DNA of 64,000 bases, from contig JAFLCP010000002.1 in NCBI GenBank assembly GCA_017303505.1, positions 1 to 64,000 of the forward strand, read 5' to 3'. Shown in pieces: positions 18,252 through 53,613 of the stretch. The DNA is from Planctomycetota bacterium. GTDB taxonomy: Bacteria; Planctomycetota; Planctomycetia; Pirellulales; Pirellulaceae. A program made the translations under genes and the position numbers. Below the pieces are notes generated by a model. The model ran no database searches, had not been told where the DNA came from, and saw nothing but the letters and a program-made list of their open reading frames with translations. Positions within the stretch are counted from its first letter, which is position 1. Each line of letters begins with the position of its first letter.

Positions 18252-18516
18252 TAATCGCAAACAGCGTTGCTCTTCCTGGCAAGCCATTCTGATTTCCCCC
18301 CCAACTGCTATCGCATTTTAATTTTGGATCTGTGCCACCCATTTGATATGTCCTAGAGCTTCACCGATTCCAGCTCAAGACATTCCATTTATGGGGCTTT
18401 TTCCGTATAGTGTTTGATTCCACAACACAAATAAAAATCTGGCGCAGAGTTTTTTGTTTCGATCAATAACGATCGACAGTTTGAGTTCGCCATTCGCTTC
18501 GGTAAGGCTTGTTATC

Positions 18517-19641
18517 ATGTTCGCTCGACCAATGTGTTTGGCCTTCGTGTGGTTTTGTTTTTTTTCGTCGACATCTGTATTTGCTCAACAAACTTCATTT
18601 TGGAAACCACAGAAGACATGGGTTTTTGTGGCTGGATTAGTTGAATGGGAAGACGAGAAATTCCTTGATTTCCCTCAAGAGAACCGGCAAGATATAAAGC
18701 TTGTTGAAGCCTTCCAAGAGTTGGGTGTGCCACGCGACCAAATTCTGTATCTCCAAGATAAAGACGCAACAACAAGTCGAGTGGTCCAGGAATTCGAAGG
18801 CTTCATATCAAAACCGAGCCAAGATGATTTGTTGGTCGTCTACTATTGTGGTCATGGATACAACACCGATAACCATACTCAAACCTATCTCGCTACCTAT
18901 GACGCTACGGACAAAAAGTTAGGTGTGCGCATCGGCGCGATCCTTGTCACTATTGAGCGGTTATTCAAAGGGAAACGTGTCATCATCGCTGCCGATCATT
19001 GTTGTTCAGGAGGTCTAGCCGAATCGCTGAAGCAACTCAATAACTCCAAGCATTCTTACGCAGCTTTTTGTTCGGCGCACGTAAATTCTGTTGCAACCGA
19101 TGCTTGGACATTCACCGAGACAATCATAGATGGACTAAAAGGGGAGAAATGGATCGATGATGATGGTGATGGCCTGATAACATTAGGCGAAGTTGCTTCA
19201 AACATAGAACTAGACATGTCGTTCGCGCATGATCAAATGCCTCAGTTTCAATTCACGGGTAATTTTCAACGCACAGATGTGTTAGCATTGTGCGAGAAGT
19301 CCACGGAAAAACGACTCGGGACTCGGCTTGAAGTGTTGGACGAAGGGAAATGGTATTCAGGCTTCGTCAAAAAGGTGAGGGATAACCAGTTCTTTATTCA
19401 CTACTATGGTTGGCCCAAGAGTGAAGAAGAATGGGTGACCAAGGATCGAATTCGCAAACAGAAAAGAGAGACGCACGAAGTCGGCACGCAGTTGTGGGCG
19501 ATGTCCGCCGGCGTATGGGAGAAGGGGCGCGTGCTTCGAGTCAAAAACGGTTTGCACCTCATCAAGTTCGAAGACTGGGGACCAGAATGGAATGAATGGG
19601 TTCCCTATCAACGAACTTCACTGACCGAAAAAGAAAAATAG
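18517..19641 (+). CDS. exported metacaspase (peptidase C14) with Tudor-knot-like domains
   Basis: A 374-residue protein with a signal peptide (MFARPMCLAFVWFCFF...VFAQ), which is why I start at this ATG rather than the upstream TTG at 18454. The caspase-like p20 domain (about 30-235) has the catalytic dyad His113 in YYCGHG and Cys162 in ADHCCSGG. A calcium-binding EF-hand-like loop DDDGDGLITLGE follows. The last 120 residues hold two small beta-barrels of Tudor-knot/chromo-barrel type, each ending in a W-E-W-V motif (EEEWVTKDRI and WNEWVPYQRT). It would cleave after Arg or Lys, if active, outside the cytoplasm. The role of the barrels is unknown. Confidence 0.8.
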   Translation: MFARPMCLAFVWFCFFSSTSVFAQQTSFWKPQKTWVFVAGLVEWEDEKFLDFPQENRQDIKLVEAFQELGVPRDQILYLQDKDATTSRVVQEFEGFISKPSQDDLLVVYYCGHGYNTDNHTQTYLATYDATDKKLGVRIGAILVTIERLFKGKRVIIAADHCCSGGLAESLKQLNNSKHSYAAFCSAHVNSVATDAWTFTETIIDGLKGEKWIDDDGDGLITLGEVASNIELDMSFAHDQMPQFQFTGNFQRTDVLALCEKSTEKRLGTRLEVLDEGKWYSGFVKKVRDNQFFIHYYGWPKSEEEWVTKDRIRKQKRETHEVGTQLWAMSAGVWEKGRVLRVKNGLHLIKFEDWGPEWNEWVPYQRTSLTEKEK

Positions 19642-29898: not shown

Positions 29899-32800
29899 TT
29901 ACAGATCTTTGAGCAATTCATCGCACCAAAACAGAATCGAGTCGAAATGGTTTTGGTGAAGTAATTCTTTGACTTTGATCCACGCTTGATGACTTTCCCA
30001 TTGCTTTTGGCGACGATAGTCGGCGGAGGCGAGACTCAATTGTCGCCGTAGTCGCAATAGCTCTCGTACCGCGTCGCGTACAGGTTGCGATTGAGTTTGA
30101 TTCAAAGCGCGTTCGATGTGCCAAGTCACTTCATCGATCCGATCCCACGTAGCGGATTCGCCGATCATGATGTGTTGATGCAAATGCTGCAATCGCGATG
30201 AACGATGTTGCAGCAACAAGCTCTGCAGGGCAGGGTGGATAAAATAATGAGTCGACTCGGGCAACGTTTTGGCAATGTCGATGATCAAATCTTCTGGTTG
30301 ACGGAATCGTTGATAGATTCGATCGCTTCGAGTATCCCGAACCAGTACACCCAACAATCCTGTCATATACAGATCGCGAAAGGGATGGTTCAAGTCTTGG
30401 TGTGTTTCCGTGTAATAGGAAAGGTCAGCCGCAGTCAGGCCATTGAACTCCGCGCTGATTTTCTCGGCTTCCTGACGACTGAGAATGTTGCTGGTAATGC
30501 GTTCCAAAAATGCATAGCGTGTCTCGGGATCATGCAAACATTGCAAGAAAGCCCGCATCTCATCGAAGATACCCGTTACCAAGCCCGATGTACTGGTCTG
30601 CGATACCAAATGGCAATAATTGGTTTCGGAAAGTTGATCTTGATTGGCTGAAAGAGTTGAGGCTAGCACTACCAAATCGCGCGGGCGCCCAAACGTATGG
30701 CGGCGCAAATATTGAAACGCATCCTCCGGCATATTGCGATAAGGATTGCGAATCATATTGAGTCGCGTAAACTCTTTGAAGTTATCGCAACCTTCATACT
30801 CGCGAGCCAACTGATCCATCATCTCTTCCAGTTGTTCAGGCGTGTAACGAAGGATGCTCGTAGCGCTGTAGAGATTAGCTTTGGTATCGGAGTGATAACT
30901 AACAAAAGCCTCCTGGCGAATCGTACAAAAAATTCGTACATGCCGATTCGCATTCATCAGTTCCCAAGCAGCTTCAATCAAGCCGGCTTGCAAATGGATC
31001 CACATCGCGGTTCCGAACTGGCTGATCGCTTGGTCCACTTTATCGATAAAGAAATATGTGGCGCTGTGAATGCGGCGAAAGGTCCGGTCCAGGAATGTGT
31101 CGCTGTCGTTGAGCAAGCGATTGAGTTTATTCGGCGAGATGTGCAAGAGTTCTTTGAAGACTAAAGTTGGATCCATACGATCGCCGAGTAGCCAATTGCG
31201 AATTCCCTCTGGAAATGGACTTAGATTCAATGAATCCTCGGGATTCAACAAGCCTCGATGTTGTGAAATCGCCGAGATTCTCAACGCCATCATCCAAAAG
31301 CGTTTGGCCGTTTTGAGATCACCCAGCAAATCTTCGTACTGTCGCGAGAGGTCGCGCAGTTCGCTCATGAAATCCAAAAACGGATGGCTTTGTGGAACGA
31401 GGCAAAGTGGTTGTTGTTTAGGTTGTGCTTCATATTCTTGACTGAGCTTATATCGCTTCAGAGATAACAGTAGTGTTTTGCCGAGCCCCTTCGTGCCAGA
31501 GATGAAGTACTTGTTGCGTTGATTCATGTAGTCGCGAACGATTTCGTTGTAATAGACAACGTTCGCTAGTTCTTCGATGTCGATTTGGTTGGCATCGGTC
31601 GCCCAGAGGTGACTGCCATTGCGTGTCGTTCGAGGTTGAGGAGTGGCAAGATTCGGTACTGCCGGGATTTGATGCAATTCCAGCGAACTCTTGATGCGAT
31701 TTAGCGTATTATCAGGATTGTTTCTTTCCCAGGAAATGGCCGAGGCTGAGCCGAGCAAGGCAAACCAGCTTGGTGGTTGCATTTGCAATTCGTACGATGA
31801 AATGTCCACCAGAACAGGAAGTATGGGCTTCTCTTTCTTAGCAGTTATTCGAACTTCGCGCTCAAAATCACGATTGGTGAGAGAACTTTTGGAGATCAAC
31901 AAGATCGACGAATAGGCGCTATCGATAGCTTCATCTTGTTGTTGAGAGTTGGAAATGCCGGGCAAGGCATCGCGATGAAAACACCAAGCTGAGTAACCGA
32001 ACTTTTTGAGTCCATTCGCGAGTACGCAGGCTGTAAGGGAATCTTCGCCCATGTGCGAAATGCAGACCGAGACACGGCGATTGGGGGAAGTGAATAGCGG
32101 GATCGGTCGGGTTGAAGTGCCCAGTTCAGCAGCTTCTGCAAAAGCTTTGGCAAAAGCACCGCAACTCGAGTAACGTGCTTCCGGAGCTTTTCGAAGAGCG
32201 CGATGCAGAACTCGCTCAATCGCTTGATAGTTGGGCGTGGCTTGATGCGACAAACTTGGTGGCGGTTCGTTGAGATGTTGTCTTAAGACATGAATCGCTT
32301 TTTTGCCGCCGAAGCACGGCCGTCCGACCAACAGTTCGTATGCGATGACTGCTAACGAATATTGATCCGCTCGACCATCAGTCACTTCGCCCATGACTTG
32401 CTCGGGCGAAGAGTAGGCCGCTGTCCCGCTATATTTTCCAGTGCCAACTGCTTTGGCGAGTTGTTGAGCGAGGCCAAAGTCGAGAATCTTCGGTTCGCCA
32501 TTGGGTGCAAAGCAGATATTCTCTGGTTTCAGATCGCGATGAATGATTCCGCGAGCGTGGGCGAAGTCAATCGCCTCGGCTAAAGGGCGAAGTACGAGTG
32601 ACACTTCTTCGGGTGTAAGCGTCTTGCGAGCGATTAGCAATTCGCGGAGTGTTTTCCCTTCGACATATTCAAAGACGATGTACGGATGGTTGAGATGTTT
32701 ACCGAAATCGAAGACGGTTGCGATACCAGGATGCAGCAAGGCTGCGTTCAGTCGAGCTTCGTGCAGCAGTAGATCGGTCGAAGTGACGTTGTGTTTCTTT

Positions 32801-33045
32801 TCCCAGTTAAGAACCTTCAATACCACCTGCCGATCAAGGTCGGTATCAAGACTAAGAAAGACCTTGCCCATGCCGCCTGAACCGAGCATCGATAGAATGC
32901 GATATCGATTGGCGATGAGCCCACCGATCGGAAAGGCTTCCTCAATCCCATCGGTACTGGAGTCGCTCTGTGCACTGACCGCTTCACCATTATCGTTAAG
33001 GGTGAGGAACACGGTGCTTTCATCAATGTAATTCGCGGCATCCAT
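29899..33045 (-). CDS. Ser/Thr kinase-TIR-P-loop ATPase fusion
   Basis: A 1048-residue soluble multidomain protein. The kinase domain (about 45-305) is complete: GSGGMG, Lys77, HRDLKPEN (Asp171), DFG (Asp189) and SPEQ. It is followed by a TIR domain (about 323-455), with VSVCISHMGED, SAWCFHRD and DFEREVRI, where Glu396 is in the place of the TIR NADase glutamate. A P-loop ATPase comes next: Walker A GTKGLGKT (517-524) and a Walker B-like YFFIDKVDQA (about 670), with helical C-terminal repeats. There is no transmembrane segment. The layout recalls STAND-type sensors used in immunity or signalling. The gene is divergent from another giant kinase. Confidence 0.85.
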   Translation of the reverse strand: MDAANYIDESTVFLTLNDNGEAVSAQSDSSTDGIEEAFPIGGLIANRYRILSMLGSGGMGKVFLSLDTDLDRQVVLKVLNWEKKHNVTSTDLLLHEARLNAALLHPGIATVFDFGKHLNHPYIVFEYVEGKTLRELLIARKTLTPEEVSLVLRPLAEAIDFAHARGIIHRDLKPENICFAPNGEPKILDFGLAQQLAKAVGTGKYSGTAAYSSPEQVMGEVTDGRADQYSLAVIAYELLVGRPCFGGKKAIHVLRQHLNEPPPSLSHQATPNYQAIERVLHRALRKAPEARYSSCGAFAKAFAEAAELGTSTRPIPLFTSPNRRVSVCISHMGEDSLTACVLANGLKKFGYSAWCFHRDALPGISNSQQQDEAIDSAYSSILLISKSSLTNRDFEREVRITAKKEKPILPVLVDISSYELQMQPPSWFALLGSASAISWERNNPDNTLNRIKSSLELHQIPAVPNLATPQPRTTRNGSHLWATDANQIDIEELANVVYYNEIVRDYMNQRNKYFISGTKGLGKTLLLSLKRYKLSQEYEAQPKQQPLCLVPQSHPFLDFMSELRDLSRQYEDLLGDLKTAKRFWMMALRISAISQHRGLLNPEDSLNLSPFPEGIRNWLLGDRMDPTLVFKELLHISPNKLNRLLNDSDTFLDRTFRRIHSATYFFIDKVDQAISQFGTAMWIHLQAGLIEAAWELMNANRHVRIFCTIRQEAFVSYHSDTKANLYSATSILRYTPEQLEEMMDQLAREYEGCDNFKEFTRLNMIRNPYRNMPEDAFQYLRRHTFGRPRDLVVLASTLSANQDQLSETNYCHLVSQTSTSGLVTGIFDEMRAFLQCLHDPETRYAFLERITSNILSRQEAEKISAEFNGLTAADLSYYTETHQDLNHPFRDLYMTGLLGVLVRDTRSDRIYQRFRQPEDLIIDIAKTLPESTHYFIHPALQSLLLQHRSSRLQHLHQHIMIGESATWDRIDEVTWHIERALNQTQSQPVRDAVRELLRLRRQLSLASADYRRQKQWESHQAWIKVKELLHQNHFDSILFWCDELLKDL

Positions 33046-33378: not shown

Positions 33379-36300
33379 ATGGAACCGTCGGAGCAAGATC
33401 AGACATCGAATTGGTCGGTGCCAACGGAAGGTTTACGCAACAGCGATTCCTCGAAAAAAATGCCCATTGCTGTTCCGGAGCGAATAGGTCGCTACAAGAT
33501 TGAGTCCAAGTTGGGCAAAGGGGGCTTTGGTGATGTCTACAAAGCCAGAGACTTAGAATTGCACCGCTCGGTCGCCATTAAGATCTCTATCCCCAATAAT
33601 TCCACAGCGGAAGTGGAAGCGATCTTTTTGAACGAAGCGCGAGTGGTGGCAAGCTTGGATCACCCTTGTATTGTTCCTGTATATGACATCGGGCGGCTTG
33701 ACTCGGGCGAATTTTATATGGTCTCGCGGTTGATCGACGGTGGTGATCTCAGCCACTTCATGCGACAGCAGAGTCCCGACCGTGCGTGGATTATCGAGTC
33801 TGTGGCACGTATCGCTGACGCCCTCCAATATGCCCATGCTAAAGGCTTGGTTCATCGAGATGTTAAGCCGAGCAACATCCTCTTGGATAAAGATGGATTA
33901 GTTTATCTGACGGACTTTGGGATCACGCTGCGCGAAGAGCAGGTCGGCAGCGGTAATGATTATGCGGGGACACCTGCCTATATGAGTCCCGAGCAAGCTC
34001 GTGGCGAAGGTCATTTGGTGGACAATCGGAGTGACATTTATAGCTTGGGCGTTGTGTTTTACGAACTTTTAACCGGACGTCGCCCGTTTCGCTCCCAGCA
34101 GCAGCTTGAGTTGATGCGTCTCATTGCAACATCCGAGGTGCGCACCCCGAGACTATTCTGCAAAGATCTGAATTCTGAGATTGAGCGTGTATGTCTGAAG
34201 GCTCTGGCGCGACGAGCAGTGGATCGCTATTCACTTGCCGCTGATTTCGCCAAAGAGCTACGGAGAATTTCGGCAAGCGTCACAGCGAAGCCGTCCGATG
34301 AGACAGCTGCGCCCTATAAGACACTGGCGACAGTTGACGTACCTCAGGCGGAAAATCAACGCCCGCGAAAAGTCGAAGATGACCTTACCCCCGACACGCC
34401 GATATCGACACCACTGCGAAACGTTAAGCAAGATCAGGTGGCCGTTGTGCCAAAAGGCCTGCGTTCCTTTGATGCGAACGACGCAAATTTCTTTTTGTCA
34501 TTGCTGCCCGGTCCGTATGATGCAACAGGTTTACCAGAGACATTGCGGAGTTGGAAGCAACGTATCGAGAACAAGAATCAGAGTGCGATGCGGGTCGGCT
34601 TAGTTTATGGCCCATCAGGTTGTGGAAAATCGTCATGGGTCAAGGCAGGGCTCATTCCTCGGCTTACTTCTGATGTAGAGACAATTTACATCGAGGCGAG
34701 TACGGCAGATACCGAGTCTCGTTTGAATCAGGCCATCAAAGATTTGTTTCCAGAAGTCCAGGGTAACTCCTTACACGAGTCGTTGGCCAACGTTCGTCGA
34801 CGTCGCGTTCTGGGGCGACAGCAAAAGTTGCTGTTGGTGATTGATCAATTCGAGCAATGGCTATTTGCTCACAACGATTACATTCAGACGGATCTGGCGA
34901 TTGCACTTCGCCAGTGCGATGGAGTACAGATTCAGTGTCTCCTATTAGTGCGAGACGATTTTTGGTTATCGGTGAGCCGATTCTTGCGGGAGTTGGAAAT
35001 CCCAATTCTGGAGGGAGAGAACAGCTCGATGGTCGATTTGTTTGAAATCGACCATGCTGAGAAAGTCCTTGGCCTATTTGGCGTGGCGTACAACAAGCTG
35101 CCACAAGAATTTAGTGCTTGGAGTTCAGAACAGAAGGCATTTGTCGAACAGGCGATTCGCGGATTGGCAATCGAACGGAAGGTGAGCCCTGTTCGTCTTT
35201 CCGTATTTGCAGAAATGATGCGCAAGTGGCCCTGGCTTCCATCATCATTACAAGAGGTGGGTGGAACTGAAGGTGTTGGTGTTACTTTTTTGGAAGAAAC
35301 ATTTTCATCACGCTATGCGCCGGCAGAGTTTCGGGTGCATGAATCGGGCGTTCGAGCCGTGTTTCGGGCGTTGCTTCCGTCAATCGGGACTGATATCAAA
35401 GGACACAAAAGAAGTTTTTCCGAGTTGAGCCAAGCAGCAGGCTATTCTGAACAGTCGGCAGATTTTCGAGAGCTTATTCACTTGCTCGATCGTAGATTAC
35501 GGTTGATTACTCCAGTCGATGAAAATGCCATCGTGAGCACTCGTTCATCGGCGTCGAAGCTTGACCAGTCAGTCAATGTCAACAAACGAGAAGATATATC
35601 GCCCAATTTGGGAAACGGTATTAGCTATCAGTTAACGCACGATTTTTTGGTCACATCGATTCGTGATTGGTTGGCGCTGAATCTGAGTCGGACTGTTGCA
35701 GGTCGTGCCGAATTGAGATTAGATGAGAGAACACGTAACTGGGATATCTTGAGGCAGAATCGATACCTACCGAGTTTTGGCGAATGGTTACAAATATTGA
35801 CCTGGACCAAGCGCAAGAATTGGTTGGTCAATCAAAAGGAAATGATGGCCCATGCGGGGCGATACTATGGGACCAGGACTCTATTGATTTCTGCGGTCGG
35901 TATGTTGTTGCTATGTGGTTGTTGGATAGGTGTAAGCCAGATATTGCAAAGACAGAGAATCGAAGGGGAGGGGAGTCTTTTTGCACAACAAGTTATCGAC
36001 CAACCTATGGAGTTTATTCCTAATCTCATCGAAGCTGAACGAGCTTCAGGGAGTGTTCATCTCCCCGCTTTGTTCAAGCAACGCGAAGTAAATTTGACGG
36101 CTGAGAAGCGTTTGAGAGTAGAAGCAGCCTTGCTAACGCTGGGCGATGATCATCAGGCATTCGACTACTTGAAAGAAAATTGGGGTGTGATGCCGCCTCA
36201 ACTGGTTTCAATGACCGCCCCTCAAATGTTGGCTCACGATAAACAATTTGCCGAACAGACGCACAAAATTTTAATCGTGCCAGAAGCAATTCAGTCGCGT

Positions 36301-38667
36301 CAAGCCGAACTTGCCTATTGGGGAGCTTTGGCGAACTATGAATCGCCGTCATTTTCTTGGGACAACTCGCATGCGAATCGCGTTGTTCAGTGTTTTCGAT
36401 TTCTCGAAATCGGAGAAGTAAATCGTTGGGTGAGTATTTTCCCTGCTCAGCGGCTGCTGTTTATTCAGGAGCTGAAAACTGAGATTGAGAACCTCGATGG
36501 GAATTGGACAAGTGAAATGATCACGGCTTTGGCGACATCGCTCGACATAGACGATCACGAGCTCTTGTTGATGGCGTTGAAACGAATCGATGTCAGGCAC
36601 ATAAAAACATTTTGCTCAGCGATGGCAAAACATCGACTGAAAGTTTTAGGGCCATTGAAATCTGGCGTCAAATCGCGCGAAGTAGATAAAACTGAGCATG
36701 AGCTCAAATATGCAATTGATTCGGAGGAGAACGCCGGGAGGCTAACGCTGATGAAGGCCAAGAAGGCTCTGGCTTTGATGCATCTGGGGGAACATGATGC
36801 CGCCTGGTTGGCAACGAATAACTCGCTCTATCCCAGATTAGAAACGGCGATCATTGAGAATCTTGCCGAATCAGGGGTGAGTTTCGATTCCATGTTATCG
36901 CTGATCGATTCCACCAAAGACCCGAATGTCCTCCGCGCACAAATCCTGGCTATGGGAACCTATCCGACCGAAACGTTGAGCCAAGCTCAAATTGAACGCG
37001 CTTGTAAGTTTCTATCGGATTTGTACAAGACTACCGAACATGGCTTTCTTCGGTCAGCATGTCGCTGGACCGTGGACCAAATTGACAATCGTTTTCAAAT
37101 GGAGAACAAGCAAGCTGTTGCGGCTGATCGTGAAAAGACCTGGTTTGTTAACTCTAAAGGGGATGAATTTTTTGTGCTCCCAGGTCCCATGCAAGGACTT
37201 GTCGGACAGTCGCCTTTGGAATGGAAGAAGCAGGCGATTGAAGTATCGGGGCAGCATCGAGTGTTGATTCCATATAGTTTTGCTGTTGGTATTCATGAAG
37301 TTACGATCCGAGATTTTCTTCCGTGTTTCTTAGAGTGGAGAGAACATTTTCGAGAAAAACTCTCTTCCGACTTTGGGTGGGCAGCGCGAAGTTTAGATTC
37401 GCCGATTGGCAGCTTGGAGTATTATGACGCTGTACGATATTGCCGATGGTTGGGTGAAAAGGAAATGATCCCCGAAACGGAGCAGTGTTATCCAAAGGTT
37501 GAGGAAATTGGCCCCGACATGGATTTGCCTGCGGACTTTCTAACTAGAAAGGGATATCGTTTGCCAACACGAGAAGAGTGGGAAATCGCCTGCAGCGGCG
37601 GTGTTAATACTCGATTCTATTGGGGAGGTGACGCAGCGGCGAGTGATCTGTTCGGTTGGTTCCAATCGAACTCAAACGATCGGATGCACCCTGTAGGCAA
37701 AAAGATGCCCAATCGACTAGGCCTATTTGACGCGCAAGGCAATGCATACGAGTGGACGTCGACACCTGAAGCCCCTTATCCAGCCTTTGTGGTTAGCGAT
37801 TCTATTTTGCTGAACGAACATCCCACCAAGGTTGAGGCTGGGGGGAAAGGTGTATTAAAAGGTGGCGAATTTGTTTCCAATCCGATCGAGCATTCTATCG
37901 GGACTCGCTGGGGACAACCTAATGAACATAGTTGGCCTGCATCCGGATTCAGGCTTGCCAGAACCATTGAAGCCTTCCCGCTGGTTGTTATGTTGTCGCG
38001 AAATCATGGAGATTTTGTGGAGTATGTCGCCAACACGGTGGACATTGAGGTTCAATGCGAAGATCCCTCATTGACCGTAACAAAGAAAGTTAACGGAAAT
38101 CAAACCACCATACGCTTCATGCAAACAGGAACGGAGAAGCGAGCGAAGAAATTCGGTTTTCGCGTTCTCAAAGGGAATCATCAAGTATCGGTCGTAGGGG
38201 AAACGATGTCAGGTGAAGCGTCCCTAAGAATTTTCCCAATTAACTCGCTGACGACCATTTCAAGTATTGCTTGTCCTGCAGATTGGGATGGCGATCTCGC
38301 AGCCGCTAAGGTTGAAAAGGTGTCTTGTGATTTGTCTGACTTGGAATCAACCATCATACAGGCCAAACAAAAGTTTGATGGAAAGAAAGGATTCTTGGTC
38401 GAGATGGAAATCGATGTTATTGGTGGCGATTATGAATTATCCCTGGGCGGCTGGATGAGAAGTCGTGTTCAAGTGAACCAAGAGAAAGTAATTGATTACT
38501 GGCCGAATTCAGCCGTCTTGACCAACATCGCGCACGTGTCGCTTCACGCAGGAAAGAATCAAGTTCAAATGGAGATTTTCAATTCCGATGTCTCAGAAGA
38601 TTTTCAATTTGACCTCAGACCCATTCTCTACTTTCCCCACAAACGTGACGAAGCAGACATTAAATGA
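33379..38667 (+). CDS. giant Ser/Thr kinase with nSTAND-type NTPase and formylglycine-generating-enzyme domain
   Basis: A 1762-residue protein. A complete kinase domain (about 38-300) has GKGGFG (46-51), Lys68, HRDVKPSN (Asp161) and DFG (Asp179). It is followed by an nSTAND-like NTPase: Walker A GPSGCGKSS (411-419), Walker B LLLVIDQFEQW (about 483-493) and a winged-helix part. A transmembrane helix (about 834-856) leads to a helical region and an FGE-sulfatase (SUMF1-type) domain (about 1297-1530) with GYRLPTREEWEIAC, NRLGLFDAQGNAYEWT and SGFRLAR. The last 230 residues are beta-rich. A kinase coupled to an energy-dependent switch with an outside sensor domain is the simplest reading. Confidence 0.88.
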   Translation: MEPSEQDQTSNWSVPTEGLRNSDSSKKMPIAVPERIGRYKIESKLGKGGFGDVYKARDLELHRSVAIKISIPNNSTAEVEAIFLNEARVVASLDHPCIVPVYDIGRLDSGEFYMVSRLIDGGDLSHFMRQQSPDRAWIIESVARIADALQYAHAKGLVHRDVKPSNILLDKDGLVYLTDFGITLREEQVGSGNDYAGTPAYMSPEQARGEGHLVDNRSDIYSLGVVFYELLTGRRPFRSQQQLELMRLIATSEVRTPRLFCKDLNSEIERVCLKALARRAVDRYSLAADFAKELRRISASVTAKPSDETAAPYKTLATVDVPQAENQRPRKVEDDLTPDTPISTPLRNVKQDQVAVVPKGLRSFDANDANFFLSLLPGPYDATGLPETLRSWKQRIENKNQSAMRVGLVYGPSGCGKSSWVKAGLIPRLTSDVETIYIEASTADTESRLNQAIKDLFPEVQGNSLHESLANVRRRRVLGRQQKLLLVIDQFEQWLFAHNDYIQTDLAIALRQCDGVQIQCLLLVRDDFWLSVSRFLRELEIPILEGENSSMVDLFEIDHAEKVLGLFGVAYNKLPQEFSAWSSEQKAFVEQAIRGLAIERKVSPVRLSVFAEMMRKWPWLPSSLQEVGGTEGVGVTFLEETFSSRYAPAEFRVHESGVRAVFRALLPSIGTDIKGHKRSFSELSQAAGYSEQSADFRELIHLLDRRLRLITPVDENAIVSTRSSASKLDQSVNVNKREDISPNLGNGISYQLTHDFLVTSIRDWLALNLSRTVAGRAELRLDERTRNWDILRQNRYLPSFGEWLQILTWTKRKNWLVNQKEMMAHAGRYYGTRTLLISAVGMLLLCGCWIGVSQILQRQRIEGEGSLFAQQVIDQPMEFIPNLIEAERASGSVHLPALFKQREVNLTAEKRLRVEAALLTLGDDHQAFDYLKENWGVMPPQLVSMTAPQMLAHDKQFAEQTHKILIVPEAIQSRQAELAYWGALANYESPSFSWDNSHANRVVQCFRFLEIGEVNRWVSIFPAQRLLFIQELKTEIENLDGNWTSEMITALATSLDIDDHELLLMALKRIDVRHIKTFCSAMAKHRLKVLGPLKSGVKSREVDKTEHELKYAIDSEENAGRLTLMKAKKALALMHLGEHDAAWLATNNSLYPRLETAIIENLAESGVSFDSMLSLIDSTKDPNVLRAQILAMGTYPTETLSQAQIERACKFLSDLYKTTEHGFLRSACRWTVDQIDNRFQMENKQAVAADREKTWFVNSKGDEFFVLPGPMQGLVGQSPLEWKKQAIEVSGQHRVLIPYSFAVGIHEVTIRDFLPCFLEWREHFREKLSSDFGWAARSLDSPIGSLEYYDAVRYCRWLGEKEMIPETEQCYPKVEEIGPDMDLPADFLTRKGYRLPTREEWEIACSGGVNTRFYWGGDAAASDLFGWFQSNSNDRMHPVGKKMPNRLGLFDAQGNAYEWTSTPEAPYPAFVVSDSILLNEHPTKVEAGGKGVLKGGEFVSNPIEHSIGTRWGQPNEHSWPASGFRLARTIEAFPLVVMLSRNHGDFVEYVANTVDIEVQCEDPSLTVTKKVNGNQTTIRFMQTGTEKRAKKFGFRVLKGNHQVSVVGETMSGEASLRIFPINSLTTISSIACPADWDGDLAAAKVEKVSCDLSDLESTIIQAKQKFDGKKGFLVEMEIDVIGGDYELSLGGWMRSRVQVNQEKVIDYWPNSAVLTNIAHVSLHAGKNQVQMEIFNSDVSEDFQFDLRPILYFPHKRDEADIK

Positions 38668-44442: not shown

Positions 44443-46503
44443 ATGAGCTTAGATATACGGTCGACTCACAACCAATCTGGAAGCCCCGATTCCCGCCGGG
44501 CTTCTCTAACCTTCACATTCGAACCGTCACCGGAGGGGCAGAAGGACTTGCTCGCCGACTCCCGGCGTTGGCTGCTCGATCGACAAGCCGCCGATGGATC
44601 TTGGTGCGGATACCTCGAAGGTGACTCGATTTTGGAAAGCGAATACTTGCTGCTGCAAGTGTTTCTGGGGCGCGAACAAACCGATATCTGTCGCCGCCTG
44701 GCCCGAGGCTTAGCCGCTCAGCAACAAGAACATGGGGGATGGTCTCAATATCCAGGTGGCGATCTCGAAGTCAGCGCCAGCGTCAAAGCGTATTGGGCAT
44801 TGAAGTTGATGGGCTATGATCCCGAGTCGGCACCGATGAAGAAGGCTCGTGACGCCATTCGCCGCGCTGGAGGCGCCGATGCGGTGAATAGTTTTACTCG
44901 ATTCTATCTCGCGCTCCTCGGGCAACTCGATTACAAATATTGTCCTGCTGTTCCCCCTGAAGCCATCTTCTTGCCTGCTTGGTTTCCCATCAACATCTAT
45001 CGTATCAGCGCTTGGTCGCGAACGATGTTGATCCCGCTCGCTTTGGTCTGGGCATTCCGACCCACGAAAGAGCTCCCCGAACATTTGCGAATCGATGAAC
45101 TGTTTATTCAACCACCAGAAAAATGGAAACCGCTCCGAGCGCCCGGTCTCCCCGATGCTCAGCAGTTCTTCTCTTGGGAGAAATTTTTCTATGGCTGTGA
45201 TCGCTGGCTAAAGAGATTAGAAGCGTATCGCATTCGACCGCTGCGCAAACTGGCGATCCATCGTTGCCAAAAATGGATGCTTGATCGTTTTGTAGATAGT
45301 GATGGACTTGGGGCAATCTTTCCACCTATTGTGTGGAGTCGCATTGTTCTCAAAGCATTAGGCTACGCAGAAGATTCGACAGAGGTGCGGTATTGTGATG
45401 AGCAACTGGAGATGCTCATTCGACCTGACGAGGTAGGGGATCAACTCAGGCTTGAGCCATGTAAATCGCCGGTGTGGGATACGGCGATTTCGCTGCGCGG
45501 CTTGGCTGCGGCAGGTTACACCGTAAAGAATGCAGAAGTCGAGCGAGCAATTGATTGGCTCCTCTCAAAACAAGTAACTCAGCCTGGTGATTGGCAAGTG
45601 AATGTCAAAGCAGAGCCGGCTGGCTGGTACTTCGAGTATCACAATGAGTTTTATCCCGATACCGATGATACCTCGATGGTTCTAATTGCATTGCGCGATT
45701 TCTTGGGCGATGAGGTGCTGCAAGCTCGCGGTCCCAAAGCCACGGTTTCCTTAGCCAAGAAACATGTTCAGCGTTGGGCCGATATTCATTCGGCTGCGGA
45801 ACGTTCGTTGGCTTGGCTCATTGCGATGCAAAACGCTGATGGTGGTTGGGGTGCATTCGATAAGAACAATAACGCTGAGTTCTTATGTTATGTCCCATTC
45901 GCCGATCACAATGCGATGATCGATCCGAGTACGCCCGATATTACCGCTCGCATTGTGGAGTCTTTGGCAGCATGGGGTTACGGACGAGAACATTCCGTCA
46001 TTCAACGCGCCATCGAATATGTGCGTAAGCATCAAGAAGCCGATGGTAGTTGGTACGGACGCTGGGGTGTCAACTACATTTACGGCACTTGGCAAGTATT
46101 GGTAGGGCTCAAGGCCGCAGGTGTGGAATCCACCGATCCGATGTTGCAGCGGGGTGCAGAGTGGTTGCTTTCCAAACAGCAGTCTGATGGTGGCTGGGGT
46201 GAATCACCGCGCAGCTATGAAGATCCGGAATGGCATGGGCGTGGTCCAGTAACCGCCTCGCAAACGGCCTGGGCACTCTTGGGCTTGATGGCTGTGTTGC
46301 CGATGGAACATGCGGCTATTCAGCGAGGCTTACAGTGGCTGCTTAATCACCGCAATGCTGCGGGGACTTGGGACGAGAGTGAGATGACGGGGACAGGTTT
46401 TCCAAGAGTCTTTTATTTGCGTTATTGGATGTACTCACATTACTTCCCAATGATGGCGATCGGCAAATATCAACAATGGTGCGAACAGCGAGAGGAAATG
46501 TAA
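44443..46503 (+). CDS. shc: squalene-hopene cyclase
   Basis: Membrane-associated triterpene cyclase that converts squalene to hopene/hopanol. The catalytic DxDD motif is PDTDDTSMV (about 408-416), and several QW repeats are visible (for example QNADGGWGAF, KQQSDGGWGES and the N-terminal DRQAADGSWCGY). Length (686 aa) is normal. The ATG is preceded by GGGAGG. It is the first gene of an operon with hpnH (3 bases after the stop) and hpnG, giving the route from squalene to ribosyl-type extended hopanoids. Confidence 0.95.
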   Translation: MSLDIRSTHNQSGSPDSRRASLTFTFEPSPEGQKDLLADSRRWLLDRQAADGSWCGYLEGDSILESEYLLLQVFLGREQTDICRRLARGLAAQQQEHGGWSQYPGGDLEVSASVKAYWALKLMGYDPESAPMKKARDAIRRAGGADAVNSFTRFYLALLGQLDYKYCPAVPPEAIFLPAWFPINIYRISAWSRTMLIPLALVWAFRPTKELPEHLRIDELFIQPPEKWKPLRAPGLPDAQQFFSWEKFFYGCDRWLKRLEAYRIRPLRKLAIHRCQKWMLDRFVDSDGLGAIFPPIVWSRIVLKALGYAEDSTEVRYCDEQLEMLIRPDEVGDQLRLEPCKSPVWDTAISLRGLAAAGYTVKNAEVERAIDWLLSKQVTQPGDWQVNVKAEPAGWYFEYHNEFYPDTDDTSMVLIALRDFLGDEVLQARGPKATVSLAKKHVQRWADIHSAAERSLAWLIAMQNADGGWGAFDKNNNAEFLCYVPFADHNAMIDPSTPDITARIVESLAAWGYGREHSVIQRAIEYVRKHQEADGSWYGRWGVNYIYGTWQVLVGLKAAGVESTDPMLQRGAEWLLSKQQSDGGWGESPRSYEDPEWHGRGPVTASQTAWALLGLMAVLPMEHAAIQRGLQWLLNHRNAAGTWDESEMTGTGFPRVFYLRYWMYSHYFPMMAIGKYQQWCEQREEM

Positions 46504-46506
46504 AAC

Positions 46507-47607
46507 ATGACAGTACCTTGGCAACAAAGTGTGGCCGTCTTGCGTCACGTTTTTCGCAATCGCTGGCGCGGCAATAAACGATACGCTCTAGTGTTGATGT
46601 TGGAGCCTCTCATGCGCTGCAACTTAGCCTGTGTGGGATGTGGAAAGATTCAGCATCCCGCTGAAGTGCTGCGCCGAAACGTTTCTCCTGAACAATGTTT
46701 TCAGGCAGTCGAGGAATGTGAAGCCCCAGTGGTTGCTATACCGGGCGGTGAACCGTTGCTGCATCCACAAATCGACAGCATCGTGGATGGATTGGTGGCA
46801 CGCAAAAAGTATGTGTATCTTTGCACCAACGCAATCAAGTTGCAGGAATCATTACACAAGTTCAAGCCTTCACGCTACCTAGCCTTCTCGGTTCATATGG
46901 ACGGCATGCAGGCGACCCATGATGCTTCGGTGAATCGGCAGGGCGTTTTTGATATTGCCATCGAAGCCATTCAAGCAGCTCGCGCAAAGGGTTTTCGTAT
47001 CACGACCAATACCACCATCTTTAATCATTCTAGTTTGGATGATTTGGCTGCGTTATTTGATCGGCTGATGGGACTGGGCGTGGAAGGAATGATGATTGCT
47101 CCTGGCTACGCTTATTCCAAGGCGCCTGACCAGCATGGATTTATGGGGCGCGAGAATTCGCATGCGTTGTTTGATCAAATTTTGGGTGATCCTCGAGCGC
47201 GACGTTGGAAGTTCAATCAATCGCCACTCTACCTCGAGTTCTTACGGGGCAATTACTCGTTGGATTGCACGGCCTGGGGGAGTCCCACCTATAACGTATT
47301 TGGCTGGCAGAAGCCTTGTTACTTGATGGACGAAGGGTATGTGTCGTCTTACAAAGAGCTTTTGGAGAGTACGGATTGGTCCAAGTATGGGCACGCAAGT
47401 GGCAACGCGAAGTGCGCGAATTGTTTGATGCATTGTGGTTTTGAGCCGACGGCTGTAGAGGCAACACTCGGCAGTATGAGCGGATTTTGGTCTACGGTCA
47501 GGACGGTGTTGGGACCACGTCGTCCTGCTCGGCCTAAGCATGAACCGCTCGCGCCAGTATCGCTTGAACCATCGCTACCCTTTGTGGCCTTGCGTGATTT
47601 ACGCTAG
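46507..47607 (+). CDS. hpnH: adenosyl-hopene transferase HpnH (radical SAM)
   Basis: Radical SAM enzyme that adds the 5'-deoxyadenosyl group to hopene in the first step of C35 hopanoid side-chain building. The 4Fe-4S triad is Cys38, Cys42 and Cys45 (RCNLACVGC), with GGEPLLHP as the SAM-binding motif and a C-terminal Cys group KCANCLMHCG. Length (366 aa) fits the family. It lies 3 bases after shc and 2 bases before hpnG. Confidence 0.95.
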   Translation: MTVPWQQSVAVLRHVFRNRWRGNKRYALVLMLEPLMRCNLACVGCGKIQHPAEVLRRNVSPEQCFQAVEECEAPVVAIPGGEPLLHPQIDSIVDGLVARKKYVYLCTNAIKLQESLHKFKPSRYLAFSVHMDGMQATHDASVNRQGVFDIAIEAIQAARAKGFRITTNTTIFNHSSLDDLAALFDRLMGLGVEGMMIAPGYAYSKAPDQHGFMGRENSHALFDQILGDPRARRWKFNQSPLYLEFLRGNYSLDCTAWGSPTYNVFGWQKPCYLMDEGYVSSYKELLESTDWSKYGHASGNAKCANCLMHCGFEPTAVEATLGSMSGFWSTVRTVLGPRRPARPKHEPLAPVSLEPSLPFVALRDLR

Positions 47608-47609
47608 TT

Positions 47610-48344
47610 ATGCATTCCAGAAATGCCGATTATCTTTTTCTCTTTCCGTTACAGATTGAGGCCTCAGCGACCTTGAAGCGTTTCAAGGCTCGCCGTGTTG
47701 CTCGTTGGAAAAATGGAAGTTGTTATCGGATCGAGTATCGGCGATATCGATGCGATGTTTTGGTAGGCGGTTCGGCGCATCGAGTGGTTGACGTCTTCCG
47801 AAGTTGGGAGCAATGGAGCGGCTTTCGCACCACTTGTCATTTAGCGGAACTCAACATTGGATTGTTTGGTTTCGCAGGTGCGCTCGCCACGGAACTAAAA
47901 CAAGGTGATCTTTGTTGGTTTGAAGAGCTGCATTGTTTGCATGAGCCTGTGCTTAGTACGGAGGCGCAGGGGTTTTCACGCCCGCGACAGGGAAGGTTGT
48001 TAACCTCGTCCACGATTGTGGCTCAGCAGCGAGAGCGAGTTGAATTGCGAGCGCAGACGCAAGCGGATGCGGTCGACATGGAAGCGTACTGGATTGCGCG
48101 AGAACTCCAATCCTATGGCCGGCAGTTGAGCTGTTGTCGGGTGATCAGCGATGATGGACGAGAGGATTTGCCCGCTTGGGTTGTCGGGTTGTTTGAAGCT
48201 AAGACTTCGCGGCAGATGATTCAAAGAGCTTTGGTGTCGGCGGTAACTCACCGCGAAGCGGCGCGTTGGCTGTGGAGAATGAAACGAGCTGCGGGGAAAC
48301 TTTCGCAGCGGCTGGCGGATGAAATTGAGGGAATAGTGGGATGA
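47610..48344 (+). CDS. hpnG: HpnG-like hopanoid nucleosidase (phosphorylase family)
   Basis: A 244-residue protein of the PNP/UDP nucleosidase superfamily. The motif VDMEAYWIARELQ (about 152-164) is the substrate-binding VDMExxA signature, and LGLFGFAGALATELKQGD-like residues form the central strand and loop. In hopanoid pathways HpnG removes adenine from adenosylhopane made by HpnH, and the gene order here supports that role. Sequence identity looks moderate, so the assignment leans on context. Confidence 0.82.
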   Translation: MHSRNADYLFLFPLQIEASATLKRFKARRVARWKNGSCYRIEYRRYRCDVLVGGSAHRVVDVFRSWEQWSGFRTTCHLAELNIGLFGFAGALATELKQGDLCWFEELHCLHEPVLSTEAQGFSRPRQGRLLTSSTIVAQQRERVELRAQTQADAVDMEAYWIARELQSYGRQLSCCRVISDDGREDLPAWVVGLFEAKTSRQMIQRALVSAVTHREAARWLWRMKRAAGKLSQRLADEIEGIVG

Positions 48345-48905: not shown

Positions 48906-49519
48906 ATTCCGTTCCTCACCGGCGAGCTATTGACGGGTAGCAATCACAACGACGGTTCGTTTAACGCTGAAGAGTGGCAGAGCACTGCTGTTGGCGCGAC
49001 CATTTCTTGTCTGTGATTGTCGCAGTGATTTTAATACCCTGCCTGAGTCTTTTGGGCATTTGGATGTAGCGAGTGGATGCTGGTTCGGGCGAGTCTGTGG
49101 CGGGGTGAACGAAGAGAAATTACGTCTCTAAGTTTGCTGAGTGAATCCAGGTGAGCGAGTTATTCCCCCCTTGCTTGTGGTGTGTGGCTTCAAGGGAGCG
49201 CTTGCTAATTTTGTTGACTTTGGAAGTTCGATTCCTTAAAACTCAATTCTCGTTCTGTCGCTAATTCTTGTTCAAACTTAAATCTTTTTGGGTTGTCATC
49301 TTTAGTAGTGCTATTAGGTTCAAAGATTTGGTGAATGTGAACGGTTTAGGAAGCCTGGCTGTCCAACGAAGGGATGGCAAATGAAGCGCGATGTGCGACG
49401 TGGTTGTTGAAGAACGACTGCCACCGACGGGAACGAAGTGCGTACCGACCGTTGCATGGCTCGGAGGTTGTAGCGCGGAGTGGCCATGCACTTGGGCAGG
49501 GTGTTTTCTAGCGTTTTTC
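48906..49519. other. left flank of the integron array, no gene seen
   Basis: 614 bp without a convincing gene. A minus-strand frame of 76 codons (49261-49491) is low-complexity and unsupported. A hairpin GCATGGC / GCCATGC lies near 49454-49490. I looked for an integron integrase or attI here and found neither; this is where they would be expected for an array in this orientation. Confidence 0.5.
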
Positions 49520-49601
49520 GTTTAACCCGTAGCCGTAGCGCATGCGGAGGCTAGGTCCGCGTTGGACTCGTCACCTTATGCGTGCTGCCATCACGTTAGA
49601 T
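49520..49601 (+). repeat. attC-like site 1 (non-coding unit)
   Basis: 82 bp from GTTTAAC to GTTAGAT, both matching the RYYYAAC and GTTRRRY core consensus. The arms pair imperfectly (TAACCCGTAGCC... with ...GCCATCACGTTA). No gene precedes it. Confidence 0.75.
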
Positions 49602-49689
49602 GTTTCTGCAGGCAGTGTTGTTAGTTTTCCAGTGCATGCATCGCCACATGCCCTGTTTATGCCAAGCTCAAATCAAACAGCAGGATTTC

Positions 49690-49771
49690 GTTTAACCCGT
49701 AGCCGTAGCGCATGCGGAGGCTAGGTCCGCGCTAGACTCGTCACCTTATGCGTGCTGCCATCACGTTAGAT
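49690..49771 (+). repeat. attC-like site 2 (non-coding unit)
   Basis: Near-identical to site 1: GTTTAAC to GTTAGAT, 82 bp. The 88-bp spacer from site 1 has no gene and is similar in sequence to the next spacer. Confidence 0.75.
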
Positions 49772-49858
49772 ATCTCTACAGGCAGTGCTGCAAGTTTCCG
49801 AGTCCATGCATCGCCACTTTCCCGACCATACCAAGCTCAAGTCAAACAGCCTGATTTC

Positions 49859-49940
49859 GTTTAACCCGTAGCCGCAGCGCATGCGGAGGCTAGGTCCGCG
49901 CTGGTCTCGTCACCTTATGCGTGCAATCACGACGTTGGAT
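49859..49940 (+). repeat. attC-like site 3 (non-coding unit)
   Basis: GTTTAAC to GTTGGAT, 82 bp, close to sites 1 and 2. The preceding 87-bp spacer carries the shared CCAAGCTCAAGTCAAACAG. Confidence 0.75.
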
Positions 49941-50065
49941 ATCTCTACAGGCAGTGTTGTTAGTTTCACCGTCGGAGCACCGCCTCCCGTCCTGTGCGGG
50001 AGGTTCTCGCGCCTGCATAGCTACTTCGCGACCATGCCAAGCTCAAGTCAAACAGTAGGGATTTC

Positions 50066-50136: not shown

Positions 50137-50682
50137 AGCATTTCGCAGCCGGTACTATGTCCCAGCAACCGATTCAAGAGTCCGCAGGAATTGGGCTAGA
50201 TTTTGGTACCAGATCTGCGGCCAATCAGGGCTACTTACCTTCTTGTTGGAAGTAAGCATGTAGCACATATACCAAAGAGTTCCTGTCACTAAATATACAG
50301 TGCGAGAAAATCGATACTTGATCTATCTACAGTCAATGTTTTTCCATCGAAAACAGATCCTTTTTCGAGCAATTTTTAGGTTTACAGGTCCATCAGGCAC
50401 GATTCGAATCGCTAGCAATTCACAACCCAAAATGCTGGCAATCGTGATTTCTCAGAAGGTGCATCGCGGTGAAGCTAACTTCTGGTGGTGATCGAGTGAG
50501 CCCGGTGTGGAAAGTTCAATCCGGCAATAACTGGTTACTGTCGGAAGGCGATTCCGACAATAATTTTCTCGACACGGTGTGAAAAAGCTGGAATAATCCA
50601 AGAGAACGGGCTGGGTAATGGTATTCCGGAATTATTGTCGGAACCCAGACCGGAATAATTATAAGTTACTCCACAGAAATGT
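50137..50682. other. non-coding leader before the first coding cassette gene
   Basis: 546 bp with no convincing gene. Its right end (50540-50660) holds the inverted repeat listed separately. A short stem CTTACCTTC / GAAGTAAG lies near 50234. If the array has an internal promoter, this is a likely place. Confidence 0.45.
50540..50655. repeat. long inverted repeat with GGAATAATT motifs
   Basis: TTCCGACAATAATT (50552-50565) and its perfect complement AATTATTGTCGGAA (50630-50643) enclose 64 bp, and the flanks pair further. Related GGAATAAT motifs recur at about 50590, 50624 and 50652. It ends about 27 bases before the first coding cassette gene. Confidence 0.75.
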
Positions 50683-51228
50683 ATGAACGGATCGAATTCG
50701 GACTTTGTTCCGCCACAGCTACGAGATCTGTGTGAGCCATTGGCGGATGGTGACAATCCGTTTGGAGATTGCGTCGCGGACGACGGGAATAACACGTGGT
50801 CTTGCCGCGTCAAGTGTTCATGTGGCGAGACAGACACATTCACCATCAGGATGGGCAACTCCTCATTGGATGGGTGGGTCTCGGGCAAGTTCGGCGGTGA
50901 TCAGCGTACGGACATCCAGTGTGAGGACTGCGGACTGGCGATTCCTTTCTTTGATGACGGCCTTCACGGATACAATGCTGTCGTTTGCGATGACCGGAGG
51001 TTGCTCCCCGCTGAATATCGAGAACGCAATGCTTCACTGTTGAAGGATTTCACATGTGACTGTGGAAACAGGACGTTTTCAGTGTTCGTGCTCGTGCGTT
51101 ATGATTGTGGCGACCTCGAAGGTATTCCCATATCACAAATTGGTGATTCCTACGGATCGTTCTATGCAGTTGCTAGATGCTCATCATGTCAGAAGATGGA
51201 GTCCATAGCCGATGCCGAAACTGCGTAG
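50683..51228 (+). CDS. cassette gene: Cys-rich hypothetical protein
   Basis: A 181-residue soluble protein, the first clear coding cassette. It has four CxC/CxxC pairs (CSCG, CEDCG, CDCG, CSSC) spaced through the sequence, suggesting two zinc-ribbon-like units. I do not recognise the family. It is followed 3 bases later by attC site 5. It has a long non-coding leader with an inverted repeat, unlike the other cassettes. Confidence 0.65.
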   Translation: MNGSNSDFVPPQLRDLCEPLADGDNPFGDCVADDGNNTWSCRVKCSCGETDTFTIRMGNSSLDGWVSGKFGGDQRTDIQCEDCGLAIPFFDDGLHGYNAVVCDDRRLLPAEYRERNASLLKDFTCDCGNRTFSVFVLVRYDCGDLEGIPISQIGDSYGSFYAVARCSSCQKMESIADAETA

Positions 51229-51231
51229 GCG

Positions 51232-51322
51232 GAGTAACAATGGGTTGGACGCGGAGGCCTCGAAAGCGTCGTTTTGAAATGGTTGATCTTTTGCTCGGCC
51301 CCGGTCAACCCCGACGTTCGTC
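51232..51322 (+). repeat. attC site 5
   Basis: 91 bp, GAGTAAC to GTTCGTC. Inner arms ATGGGTTGGACGCGGAGGCC and the 3' GGCCCCGGTCAACCCCGAC pair well. Confidence 0.9.
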
Positions 51323-51342
51323 GAATAGAAACTTTGTGCGAG

Positions 51343-51633
51343 ATGGTCGTTGCCGTACCCGAAGTTCGCGAAATGGTCGCCGCTGCTCGAAAGTTCGTGG
51401 ATGGCGAACTTCACTTCTCGGCCCTCGTCGGTCCTATTGCATTATGTGAATGGTGGTCTCGAGTAAACGGCGAACATTCTGCAGTACACGTTCTTGCAAA
51501 GCGATGGGAGTTGCTGGTGGATCGGACATGGAATGAATATGGACAACATGCAAATTCGTTGACGGTAGACGAATTGCGGCAAGAATTACTGCGGGACATC
51601 GAGGCCTGGTACCGTGAACCGACAGGAACTTGA
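51343..51633 (+). CDS. cassette gene: hypothetical protein
   Basis: A 96-residue helical soluble protein (VREMVAAARKFVDGELHF, then ALCEWWSRV) with no family I can name. The frame is open from inside attC 5 (ATG at 51274), but I start at 51343, past the site. Its end overlaps the next gene by 20 bases, so this cassette carries two genes. Small helical proteins of this shape include immunity-type proteins; that is only a possibility here. Confidence 0.6.
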   Translation: MVVAVPEVREMVAAARKFVDGELHFSALVGPIALCEWWSRVNGEHSAVHVLAKRWELLVDRTWNEYGQHANSLTVDELRQELLRDIEAWYREPTGT

Positions 51634-51844: not shown

Positions 51845-51855
51845 CACCGAAACCC

Positions 51856-51945: not shown

Positions 51946-51957
51946 CACTGAATTCCG

Positions 51958-52993: not shown

Positions 52994-53019
52994 TATTCAA
53001 TCTGGAGTAATACATAAAA

Positions 53020-53607: not shown

Positions 53608-53613
53608 AAACAA

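What the first reader, a model, noticed from the sequence alone, without database searches (positions are those of the whole stretch)
29899..33045. Kinase-TIR-ATPase fusion protein
One polypeptide joins a complete Ser/Thr kinase, a TIR domain keeping the NADase-type Glu (Glu396), and a P-loop ATPase with helical repeats. TIR plus STAND ATPase is the core of several antiviral and cell-death systems. A kinase fused in front suggests phosphorylation controls, or is controlled by, NAD cleavage or TIR signalling. It is a candidate for an undescribed defence or stress system.
Basis: partly seen in the sequence, partly recalled or inferred. Interest (0 to 1): 0.7.

Follow-up and report, generated by a model that had tools for sequence, protein, structure and literature searches.

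The report
Kinase–TIR–ATPase switch protein of Planctomycetota
A rare planctomycete protein joins an intact protein kinase, a TIR domain and an immune-receptor-like ATPase in one chain; relatives in myxobacteria carry a nucleotide cyclase instead of the TIR, so it looks like a modular signalling switch, while evidence for an anti-phage role or NAD-cleaving activity is weak.

Summary
In detail: one 1048-aa minus-strand ORF (33045→29899) encodes kinase (48–297), TIR (~322–460) and a P-loop ATPase (~481–1048). It is not a chance fusion: 11 further planctomycete proteins share kinase–TIR–ATPase (42% identity end to end with the nearest complete-genome one), one more is TIR–ATPase only. The ATPase belongs to the NCBIfam 'Sll1717' family; its predicted fold is ORC/STAND-like (NBD, lid, winged helix) plus a short helical tail, with no repeat array. 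Kinase and ATPase catalytic residues are invariant. The TIR pocket is not: the catalytic Glu (E397, not E396) is E in 10 of 13 and D/Q in 3, and the usual aromatic four residues upstream is acidic in 11 of 13, against 0 of 30 other planctomycete TIRs. Myxobacterial relatives have kinase–ATPase with, in 4 of 6, a C-terminal class III cyclase and no TIR. The gene is rare (3 of 392 Planctomycetota genomes), has no conserved neighbours, no phage relatives and no known defence genes beside it. Best reading: an NLR-like ATP switch whose main output is the kinase, with TIR as assembly or altered-enzyme module. NADase-based defence stays possible but unsupported by context. New variant of a known kind.

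The parts
29899..33045 (-). complete gene, 1048 aa kinase-TIR-ATPase protein (stop codon included)
   Evidence: end-to-end ortholog 42% identical
32155..32904 (-). Ser/Thr kinase domain, residues 48-297 (Pkinase E=6e-45); K77, E96, D171, N176, D189 all present
   Evidence: residues invariant in all 16 fused kinases of the alignment
31666..32082 (-). TIR domain, about residues 322-460
   Evidence: Pfam TIR_2; AlphaFold pLDDT 90; SARM1 TIR Z 18.4, SPARTA TIR Z 18.0
31957..31974 (-). BB-loop motif RDALPG, residues 358-363
   Evidence: RDxxPG in nearly all family TIRs; same motif in animal MAL, IL-1RAcP and oyster TIR-STING hits
31855..31857 (-). putative catalytic Glu E397 of the TIR (acidic D393 at -4 where NADases usually have Trp)
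30211..31605 (-). ORC/STAND-like ATPase core of the Sll1717 family, residues 481-945: NBD, lid, winged helix
   Evidence: NCBIfam NF047389 82.3 bits; fold matches SSO1545, Orc1/Cdc6, RPP1, NRC, CED-4
31474..31497 (-). Walker A GTKGLGKT, residues 517-524
   Evidence: K523 invariant in 18 of 18
31033..31053 (-). Walker B FFIDKVD, residues 665-671
   Evidence: D668 and D671 invariant in 18 of 18
30916..30918 (-). sensor-type arginine R710 (IFCTIR)
   Evidence: invariant in 18 of 18
30676..30690 (-). GxP-type motif GRPRD, residues 786-790
   Evidence: P788 and R789 invariant in 18 of 18
29902..30141 (-). C-terminal helical tail, residues 969-1048, not a recognised repeat array
   Evidence: secondary structure of the model

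Best explanation
It is a cytosolic NLR-like signalling switch in one chain. Inferred cycle: the ORC/STAND-like ATPase holds the protein inactive with nucleotide bound; a trigger felt through the ATPase, its winged helix or the C-terminal helical tail leads to nucleotide exchange and oligomerisation; this brings the N-terminal kinases together so that they trans-phosphorylate and then phosphorylate downstream targets. The TIR between kinase and ATPase supplies homotypic TIR-TIR contacts that stabilise the assembly, and may keep a weak or altered nucleotide chemistry in some members. Shown here: domain make-up, strict conservation of kinase and ATPase catalytic residues, relaxed and remodelled TIR site, replacement of TIR by a nucleotide cyclase in myxobacterial relatives. 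Inferred: oligomerisation, order of events, trigger, targets and the biological purpose (stress or conflict signalling).
For: Kinase residues K, E, HRD, N and DFG are invariant in 16 of 16 fused kinases, and Walker A Lys, both Walker B Asp, sensor Arg and GxP Pro in 18 of 18 ATPases. The TIR catalytic Glu is E in 10 of 13, D in L015, Q in L024 and L026 (L003 and L011 read). ThsB E85Q is dead in a characterised TIR (PMC10022894). Position -4 is acidic in 11 of 13 but in 0 of 30 other planctomycete TIRs (Fisher p=1.4e-8). Myxococcota keep kinase-ATPase without any TIR; 4 of 6 end in a class III cyclase (profile E=4e-9 to Rv1900c). The ATPase fold matches oligomerising RPP1, NRC3/4, CED-4 and Orc/Cdc6. 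The BB loop resembles that of assembly-type TIRs of animals.
Against: No oligomerisation, kinase or ATPase activity was or could be measured. The structural Z of the TIR is as high for enzymatic SARM1 and SPARTA TIRs as for scaffold TIRs, so fold does not favour scaffold. One locus (L016) has TIR-ATPase without the kinase in frame, so the kinase is not indispensable there (its contig begins about 0.5 kb upstream). The lower Glu conservation alone is not significant against the background (p=0.075). The kinases of the two phyla are each monophyletic, but their common origin is neither supported nor rejected (p-AU 0.48), so the kinase may have been fused twice.
Confidence: 0.42

Rival explanations
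1. Kinase-gated TIR NADase effector: on infection or stress the ATPase oligomerises, aligned TIRs cleave NAD+ and arrest or kill the cell, and the kinase sets the threshold by phosphorylating the TIR or linker.
For: E397 is present in this protein and Glu in 10 of 13 relatives; TIR fold closest to SARM1 and SPARTA, both NADases active on oligomerisation; weak PADLOC similarity to SPARTA-type TIRs, E=5e-6; sporadic distribution, 3 of 392 genomes, as for accessory conflict genes; the Sll1717 ATPase family also occurs with a TIR-superfamily SEFIR domain at the C-terminus on a Butyrivibrio plasmid.
Against: Glu replaced by Gln or Asp in 3 of 13, acidic residue at -4 in 11 of 13; no defence genes or conserved partners nearby; no TIR at all in the myxobacterial branch.
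Confidence: 0.27
2. Housekeeping-type planctomycete Ser/Thr kinase with accessory domains, one of over 70 kinases of this genome, for development or environmental regulation and not for conflict; TIR only a docking surface.
For: 74 strong kinase matches in the genome; kinase-TPR next to an ECF sigma factor and kinase-nSTAND1-FGE next door; no conserved neighbours; kinase expansions with many accessory domains are typical of the phylum (PMC11032199).
Against: Too rare (3 of 392 genomes) for a housekeeping or developmental regulator; ATPase fold and TIR or cyclase partners are typical of conflict proteins (PMC7159879, PMC8195603).
Confidence: 0.2
3. A messenger-producing switch: kinase-ATPase is the chassis and the third domain makes a nucleotide second messenger, an NAD-derived one by TIR in Planctomycetota and a cyclic nucleotide by the class III cyclase in Myxococcota. 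Overlaps partly with the two readings above.
For: TIR and cyclase are mutually exclusive on the same ATPase clade; cyclase metal-binding Asp residues D13 and D56 invariant in 4 of 4; TIR and cNMP cyclase are listed as alternative signal-generating modules of other conflict systems in PMC7159879.
Against: Two of six myxobacterial-type members (L019, L023) have neither domain; the TIR pocket is altered in the family and lacks the Glu in some members; no messenger receptor gene was recognised nearby.
Confidence: 0.2
4. Artefact of assembly or frame-shift joining separate genes.
For: None found.
Against: Same architecture in 12 independent assemblies, including complete or isolate genomes.
Confidence: 0.01

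Closest known systems
Sll1717-family P-loop ATPases (NCBIfam NF047389)
   Same: ATPase part scores 82.3 bits against cut-off 75 over nearly the full profile
   Different: Those sampled in the phylum lack kinase and TIR_2; two have other extensions (a weak DRHyd/CAP12-TIR-like N-terminus in L065, a nuclease-like C-terminus judged by eye only in L066). No paper in the library names the family.
TIR-NLR / STAND receptors (plant RPP1 and bacterial STAND conflict proteins)
   Same: TIR N-terminal to an NBD-lid-WHD ATPase; fold match Z about 9-10
   Different: No LRR, TPR or WD sensor array recognised; N-terminal kinase; TIR pocket atypical
Kinase/TIR effectors with nSTAND1-FGS conflict systems (PMC8195603)
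   Same: Uses kinase and TIR as exchangeable modules on STAND ATPases; the divergent neighbour 33379-38667 is a kinase-nSTAND1-FGE protein of that kind
   Different: Here both kinase and TIR sit on one Sll1717-type ATPase with no FGS domain; not described in the passages read
Thoeris ThsB, SPARTA TIR-APAZ and SARM1 TIR NADases
   Same: TIR fold, Glu at the catalytic position
   Different: D393 instead of the usual Trp/aromatic at -4; no ThsA or Ago partner; TLR-like RDxxPG BB loop
TOMM kinase/cyclase fusion (TIGR03903) and PD-T4-6 defence kinases
   Same: Kinase similarity; kinase fused to other signalling modules
   Different: Similarity limited to the generic kinase domain and far below the TOMM curated cut-off

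Membership tests
Active Ser/Thr protein kinase (Hanks type) | VAIK Lys, alpha-C Glu, HRD Asp, Asn, DFG Asp | tested here: met
   K77, E96, D171, N176, D189 present and invariant in 16 of 16 fused kinases
TIR domain | TIR fold | tested here: met
   Pfam TIR_2 over cut-off; model pLDDT 90, SARM1 Z 18.4
TIR NADase | catalytic Glu at the alpha-C position | tested here: met
   E397 present in this protein; not invariant in the family: D in L015, Q in L024 and L026
TIR NADase | aromatic residue four before the Glu (Trp in SARM1 and AbTir) | tested here: not met
   D393; acidic in 11 of 13 family members versus 0 of 30 other planctomycete TIRs, 22 of 30 of which are Trp/Tyr. The Trp is needed for cyclisation in AbTir (PMC10937652), so this is a frequent, not a strictly defining feature
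TIR NADase | NAD+ cleavage | not testable with these tools
   needs a bench assay
Sll1717-family P-loop ATPase (NF047389) | score over the curated cut-off | tested here: met
   82.3 against 75 bits; some orthologs score just under, 63-71 bits
STAND / ORC-like ATPase | Walker A, Walker B, sensor Arg, GxP motif, NBD-lid-WHD fold | tested here: met
   motifs conserved in 18 of 18 apart from one G in GxP; fold matches ORC/Cdc6 and NLRs at Z 9-11, which cannot tell ORC from STAND
NLR-like receptor | superstructure-forming sensor repeats | tested here: inconclusive
   no Pfam repeat; short helical tail only; the tail was not folded and searched on its own
Known anti-phage defence system | full-length match to a system model, or partner or defence genes next to the gene in several genomes | tested here: not met
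   PADLOC hits of the full protein are kinase-only among those shown and of the ATPase none; neighbours show only generic kinase hits among those shown and single isolated hits in the window; no conserved neighbour
Thoeris | ThsA partner gene | tested here: not met
   no Thoeris model among the eight families hit by 39 window proteins nor among those listed for 71 neighbours of homologues (25 of 43 families shown)
EAD/FGS ternary conflict systems (PMC8195603) | effector-associated domain shared with a partner gene | not tested
   no EAD profiles available here

The most novel reading that the evidence does not exclude
An undescribed family of bacterial one-protein switches in which a Ser/Thr kinase and an ORC/STAND-like ATPase form a common chassis carrying interchangeable nucleotide-signal modules: TIR in Planctomycetota, class III nucleotide cyclase in Myxococcota. 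Protein phosphorylation and second-messenger production would be coupled in one oligomer.
Probability: 0.25. Interest if true: 0.7.

Novelty: new variant of a known kind. Interest (0 to 1): 0.5.

Why it matters
Animal TIR signalling runs through separate TIR adaptors and kinases (MyD88 and IRAK). Here kinase, TIR and an NLR-like ATPase sit on one bacterial chain, so it can be tested directly whether an ATP-driven assembly can switch on a kinase, and whether the TIR acts as glue or enzyme. The swap of TIR for a cyclase in myxobacterial relatives on the same ATPase family gives a natural experiment on which output matters.

Tried and rejected
A single-sequence search of genome and viral collections found nothing; an alignment-based search was needed. 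No relatives in IMG/VR or INPHARED phages; the only plasmid hits are remote: Butyrivibrio ATPase–SEFIR 28%, Undibacterium 25%. PADLOC 'PD-T4-6' and 'mad6' hits rejected as generic kinase similarity: the neighbouring kinases score equally. PDB search with the ATPase profile by sequence found nothing meaningful. A conserved operon was looked for and not found. Claim that Glu loss proves a dead TIR: rejected as too strong, p=0.075 against background and E397 present here. Shared origin of planctomycete and myxobacterial fused kinases: unresolved. A scaffold-type TIR cannot be told from an enzyme type by fold. Integron integrase: no match over the family cut-off in the genome, so the attC-like array is left as an aside. 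No paper describing this architecture was found, but the library lacks most subscription journals, and the supplementary architecture tables of PMC11032199 could not be read.

Full report
Observation. The interval 29899–33045 holds one 1048-codon ORF on the minus strand, ATG at 33045; the plus strand is full of stops. Pfam finds a full kinase domain (48–297, E=6e-45) and TIR_2 (327–416, E=4.7e-10), both over their cut-offs. The C-terminal half is named by NCBIfam as P-loop ATPase, Sll1717 family (503–942, 82.3 bits, cut-off 75). The genome (7.76 Mb, 295 contigs, Planctomycetota by its relatives) has a single TIR_2 match and a single Sll1717 match over the cut-off, against 74 strong kinase matches.

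Is the fusion real? Yes. Among 392 Planctomycetota genomes two others have it or its TIR–ATPase part. G291 carries kinase–TIR–ATPase, 42% identical over 1007 residues. An alignment-based scan of GTDB genomes found 18 loci. Twelve are planctomycete; ORFs and alignment show kinase–TIR–ATPase in ten of them (one, L013, with an N-terminal HTH_3 domain), TIR–ATPase without kinase in one (L016, the same locus as G150; its contig starts 0.5 kb upstream), and one cut by a contig end (L017). With the window and G291 that makes 12 kinase–TIR–ATPase proteins and 13 with TIR.

A second branch. Six loci, five of them in Myxococcota (Sorangium, Enhygromyxa twice, Plesiocystis, a Polyangia MAG) and one in an unnamed bacterial MAG (L023), carry kinase–ATPase with no TIR. 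Four of these end in a domain that a profile search matches to class III nucleotide cyclases (Rv1900c/lipJ 1ybt, E=4e-9; Ma1120), with both metal-binding Asp positions conserved. On the ATPase tree the TIR group and the Myxococcota-type group are each one side of a fully supported branch (100/100). Kinase trees with 33 background kinases also make each fused set one supported group, but leave open whether the two sets share an origin (p-AU 0.48). ATPase identity between the two groups averages 42%, kinase identity 32%. In the Firmicute Butyrivibrio a plasmid-borne relative is ATPase–SEFIR, that is, with a TIR-superfamily domain at the other end.

Kinase and ATPase. All catalytic kinase residues are invariant in 16 of 16 fused kinases; Walker A Lys, two Walker B Asp, a sensor-type Arg and the Pro of the GxP-like GRPRD motif are invariant in 18 of 18 ATPases. 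The AlphaFold model of the ATPase (pLDDT 86) matches SSO1545, Orc1/Cdc6, plant resistosomes, RdrA and CED-4, Z 9–11 for up to about 330 residues. So 'STAND-like' is fair as a fold statement, though ORC and STAND cannot be separated here. No long repeat array is present.

TIR. The model (pLDDT 90) is a clear TIR: SARM1 Z 18.4, SPARTA 18.0, MyD88 16.4. The Glu of the NADase site is E397. In the family it is E in 10 of 13, D in L015, Q in L024 and L026 (L003 and L011 read). On the kinase tree the two Gln carriers are separated by Glu carriers, so at least two changes at this site are likely. A Gln at this position abolished ThsB activity (PMC10022894). The residue four before the Glu, Trp in SARM1 and AbTir, is acidic in 11 of 13; among the 30 strongest TIR_2 hits in other Planctomycetota it is never acidic and is Trp/Tyr in 22, with Glu kept in 29 (Fisher p=1.4e-8 for the acidic residue, but only p=0.075 for Glu loss). 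None of those 30 TIR ORFs shows a kinase within the sequence held. The BB loop reads RDxxPG in nearly all members, like animal MAL, IL-1RAcP and oyster TIR-STING, the best PDB sequence hits. The TIR is therefore atypical in its pocket, intact in fold, and may be mainly an assembly element. This is inference; the protein in the window could still be active.

Context. The gene is flanked by a divergent kinase–nSTAND1–FGE protein (33379–38667, 333 bp away), of the FGS conflict type described in PMC8195603, and, beyond a 322-aa protein, by an ECF sigma factor and a kinase–TPR protein. This arrangement is not conserved: all-against-all comparison of neighbours in 17 loci gives no recurrent family other than kinases, one group found at three loci and one at two. 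PADLOC on 71 neighbours gives only kinase hits among the families listed, and on 39 window proteins eight isolated family hits. No relatives in phages or viral contigs. Occurrence is sparse: 3 of 392 Planctomycetota and 2 of 284 in the Myxococcota-centred set.

Interpretation. Selection has kept kinase and ATPase chemistry strictly and TIR chemistry loosely, and the third module differs between phyla. I therefore prefer a switch whose main output is phosphorylation, gated by an ATPase that probably oligomerises, with TIR as assembly or modified enzymatic module (0.42). A kinase-gated NADase (0.27), an ordinary kinase regulator (0.20) and a messenger-producing chassis (0.20) remain open; the last overlaps with the others. 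Defence is plausible from domain types and rarity, but no context evidence supports it.

Novelty. I found no description of kinase–TIR–Sll1717 proteins in the open library. Combining kinases, TIRs, cyclases and STAND ATPases is a known theme (PMC7159879, PMC8195603), so this is a new variant of a known kind.

Noticed in passing
window 50600-64000: Seven ~84-nt imperfect palindromic elements (AACnAAGCG...GCCGnCGTTA/C), spaced about 0.5-5.5 kb, among many small ORFs (CPCC, Imm11, ankyrin proteins): looks like an integron gene-cassette array with attC-like sites. No integron integrase over the family cut-off in the genome.
   Followed up: partly
window 18454-19638 (+): Caspase-like peptidase (Peptidase_C14) with a C-terminal Tudor-knot/chromo-like domain, an unusual pairing.
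   Followed up: no
window 33379-38667 (+): 1762-aa kinase-nSTAND1-FGE-sulfatase protein, divergent from the finding; matches the FGS conflict architecture of PMC8195603.
   Followed up: partly
L013 8504-12172: Ortholog with an extra N-terminal XRE-type HTH_3 domain before kinase-TIR-ATPase, suggesting DNA binding or transcriptional control.
   Followed up: no
L020, L021, L022, L025: Myxobacterial kinase-ATPase-class III cyclase proteins with a related ATPase; the usual cyclase transition-state Asn reads His (VHRLFR).
   Followed up: partly
L065 and L066: Other planctomycete Sll1717 ATPases with a weak DRHyd/CAP12-TIR-like N-terminal extension (L065) and a nuclease-like C-terminal extension judged by eye (L066).
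   Followed up: partly
window 44443-48341 (+): Squalene-hopene cyclase, DUF3463 radical SAM (HpnH-like) and a phosphorylase: an ordinary hopanoid biosynthesis cluster.
   Followed up: no
window 49489-49984: Three tandem copies of a ~170-nt repeat, 78-85% alike, in a gene-poor stretch.
   Followed up: no
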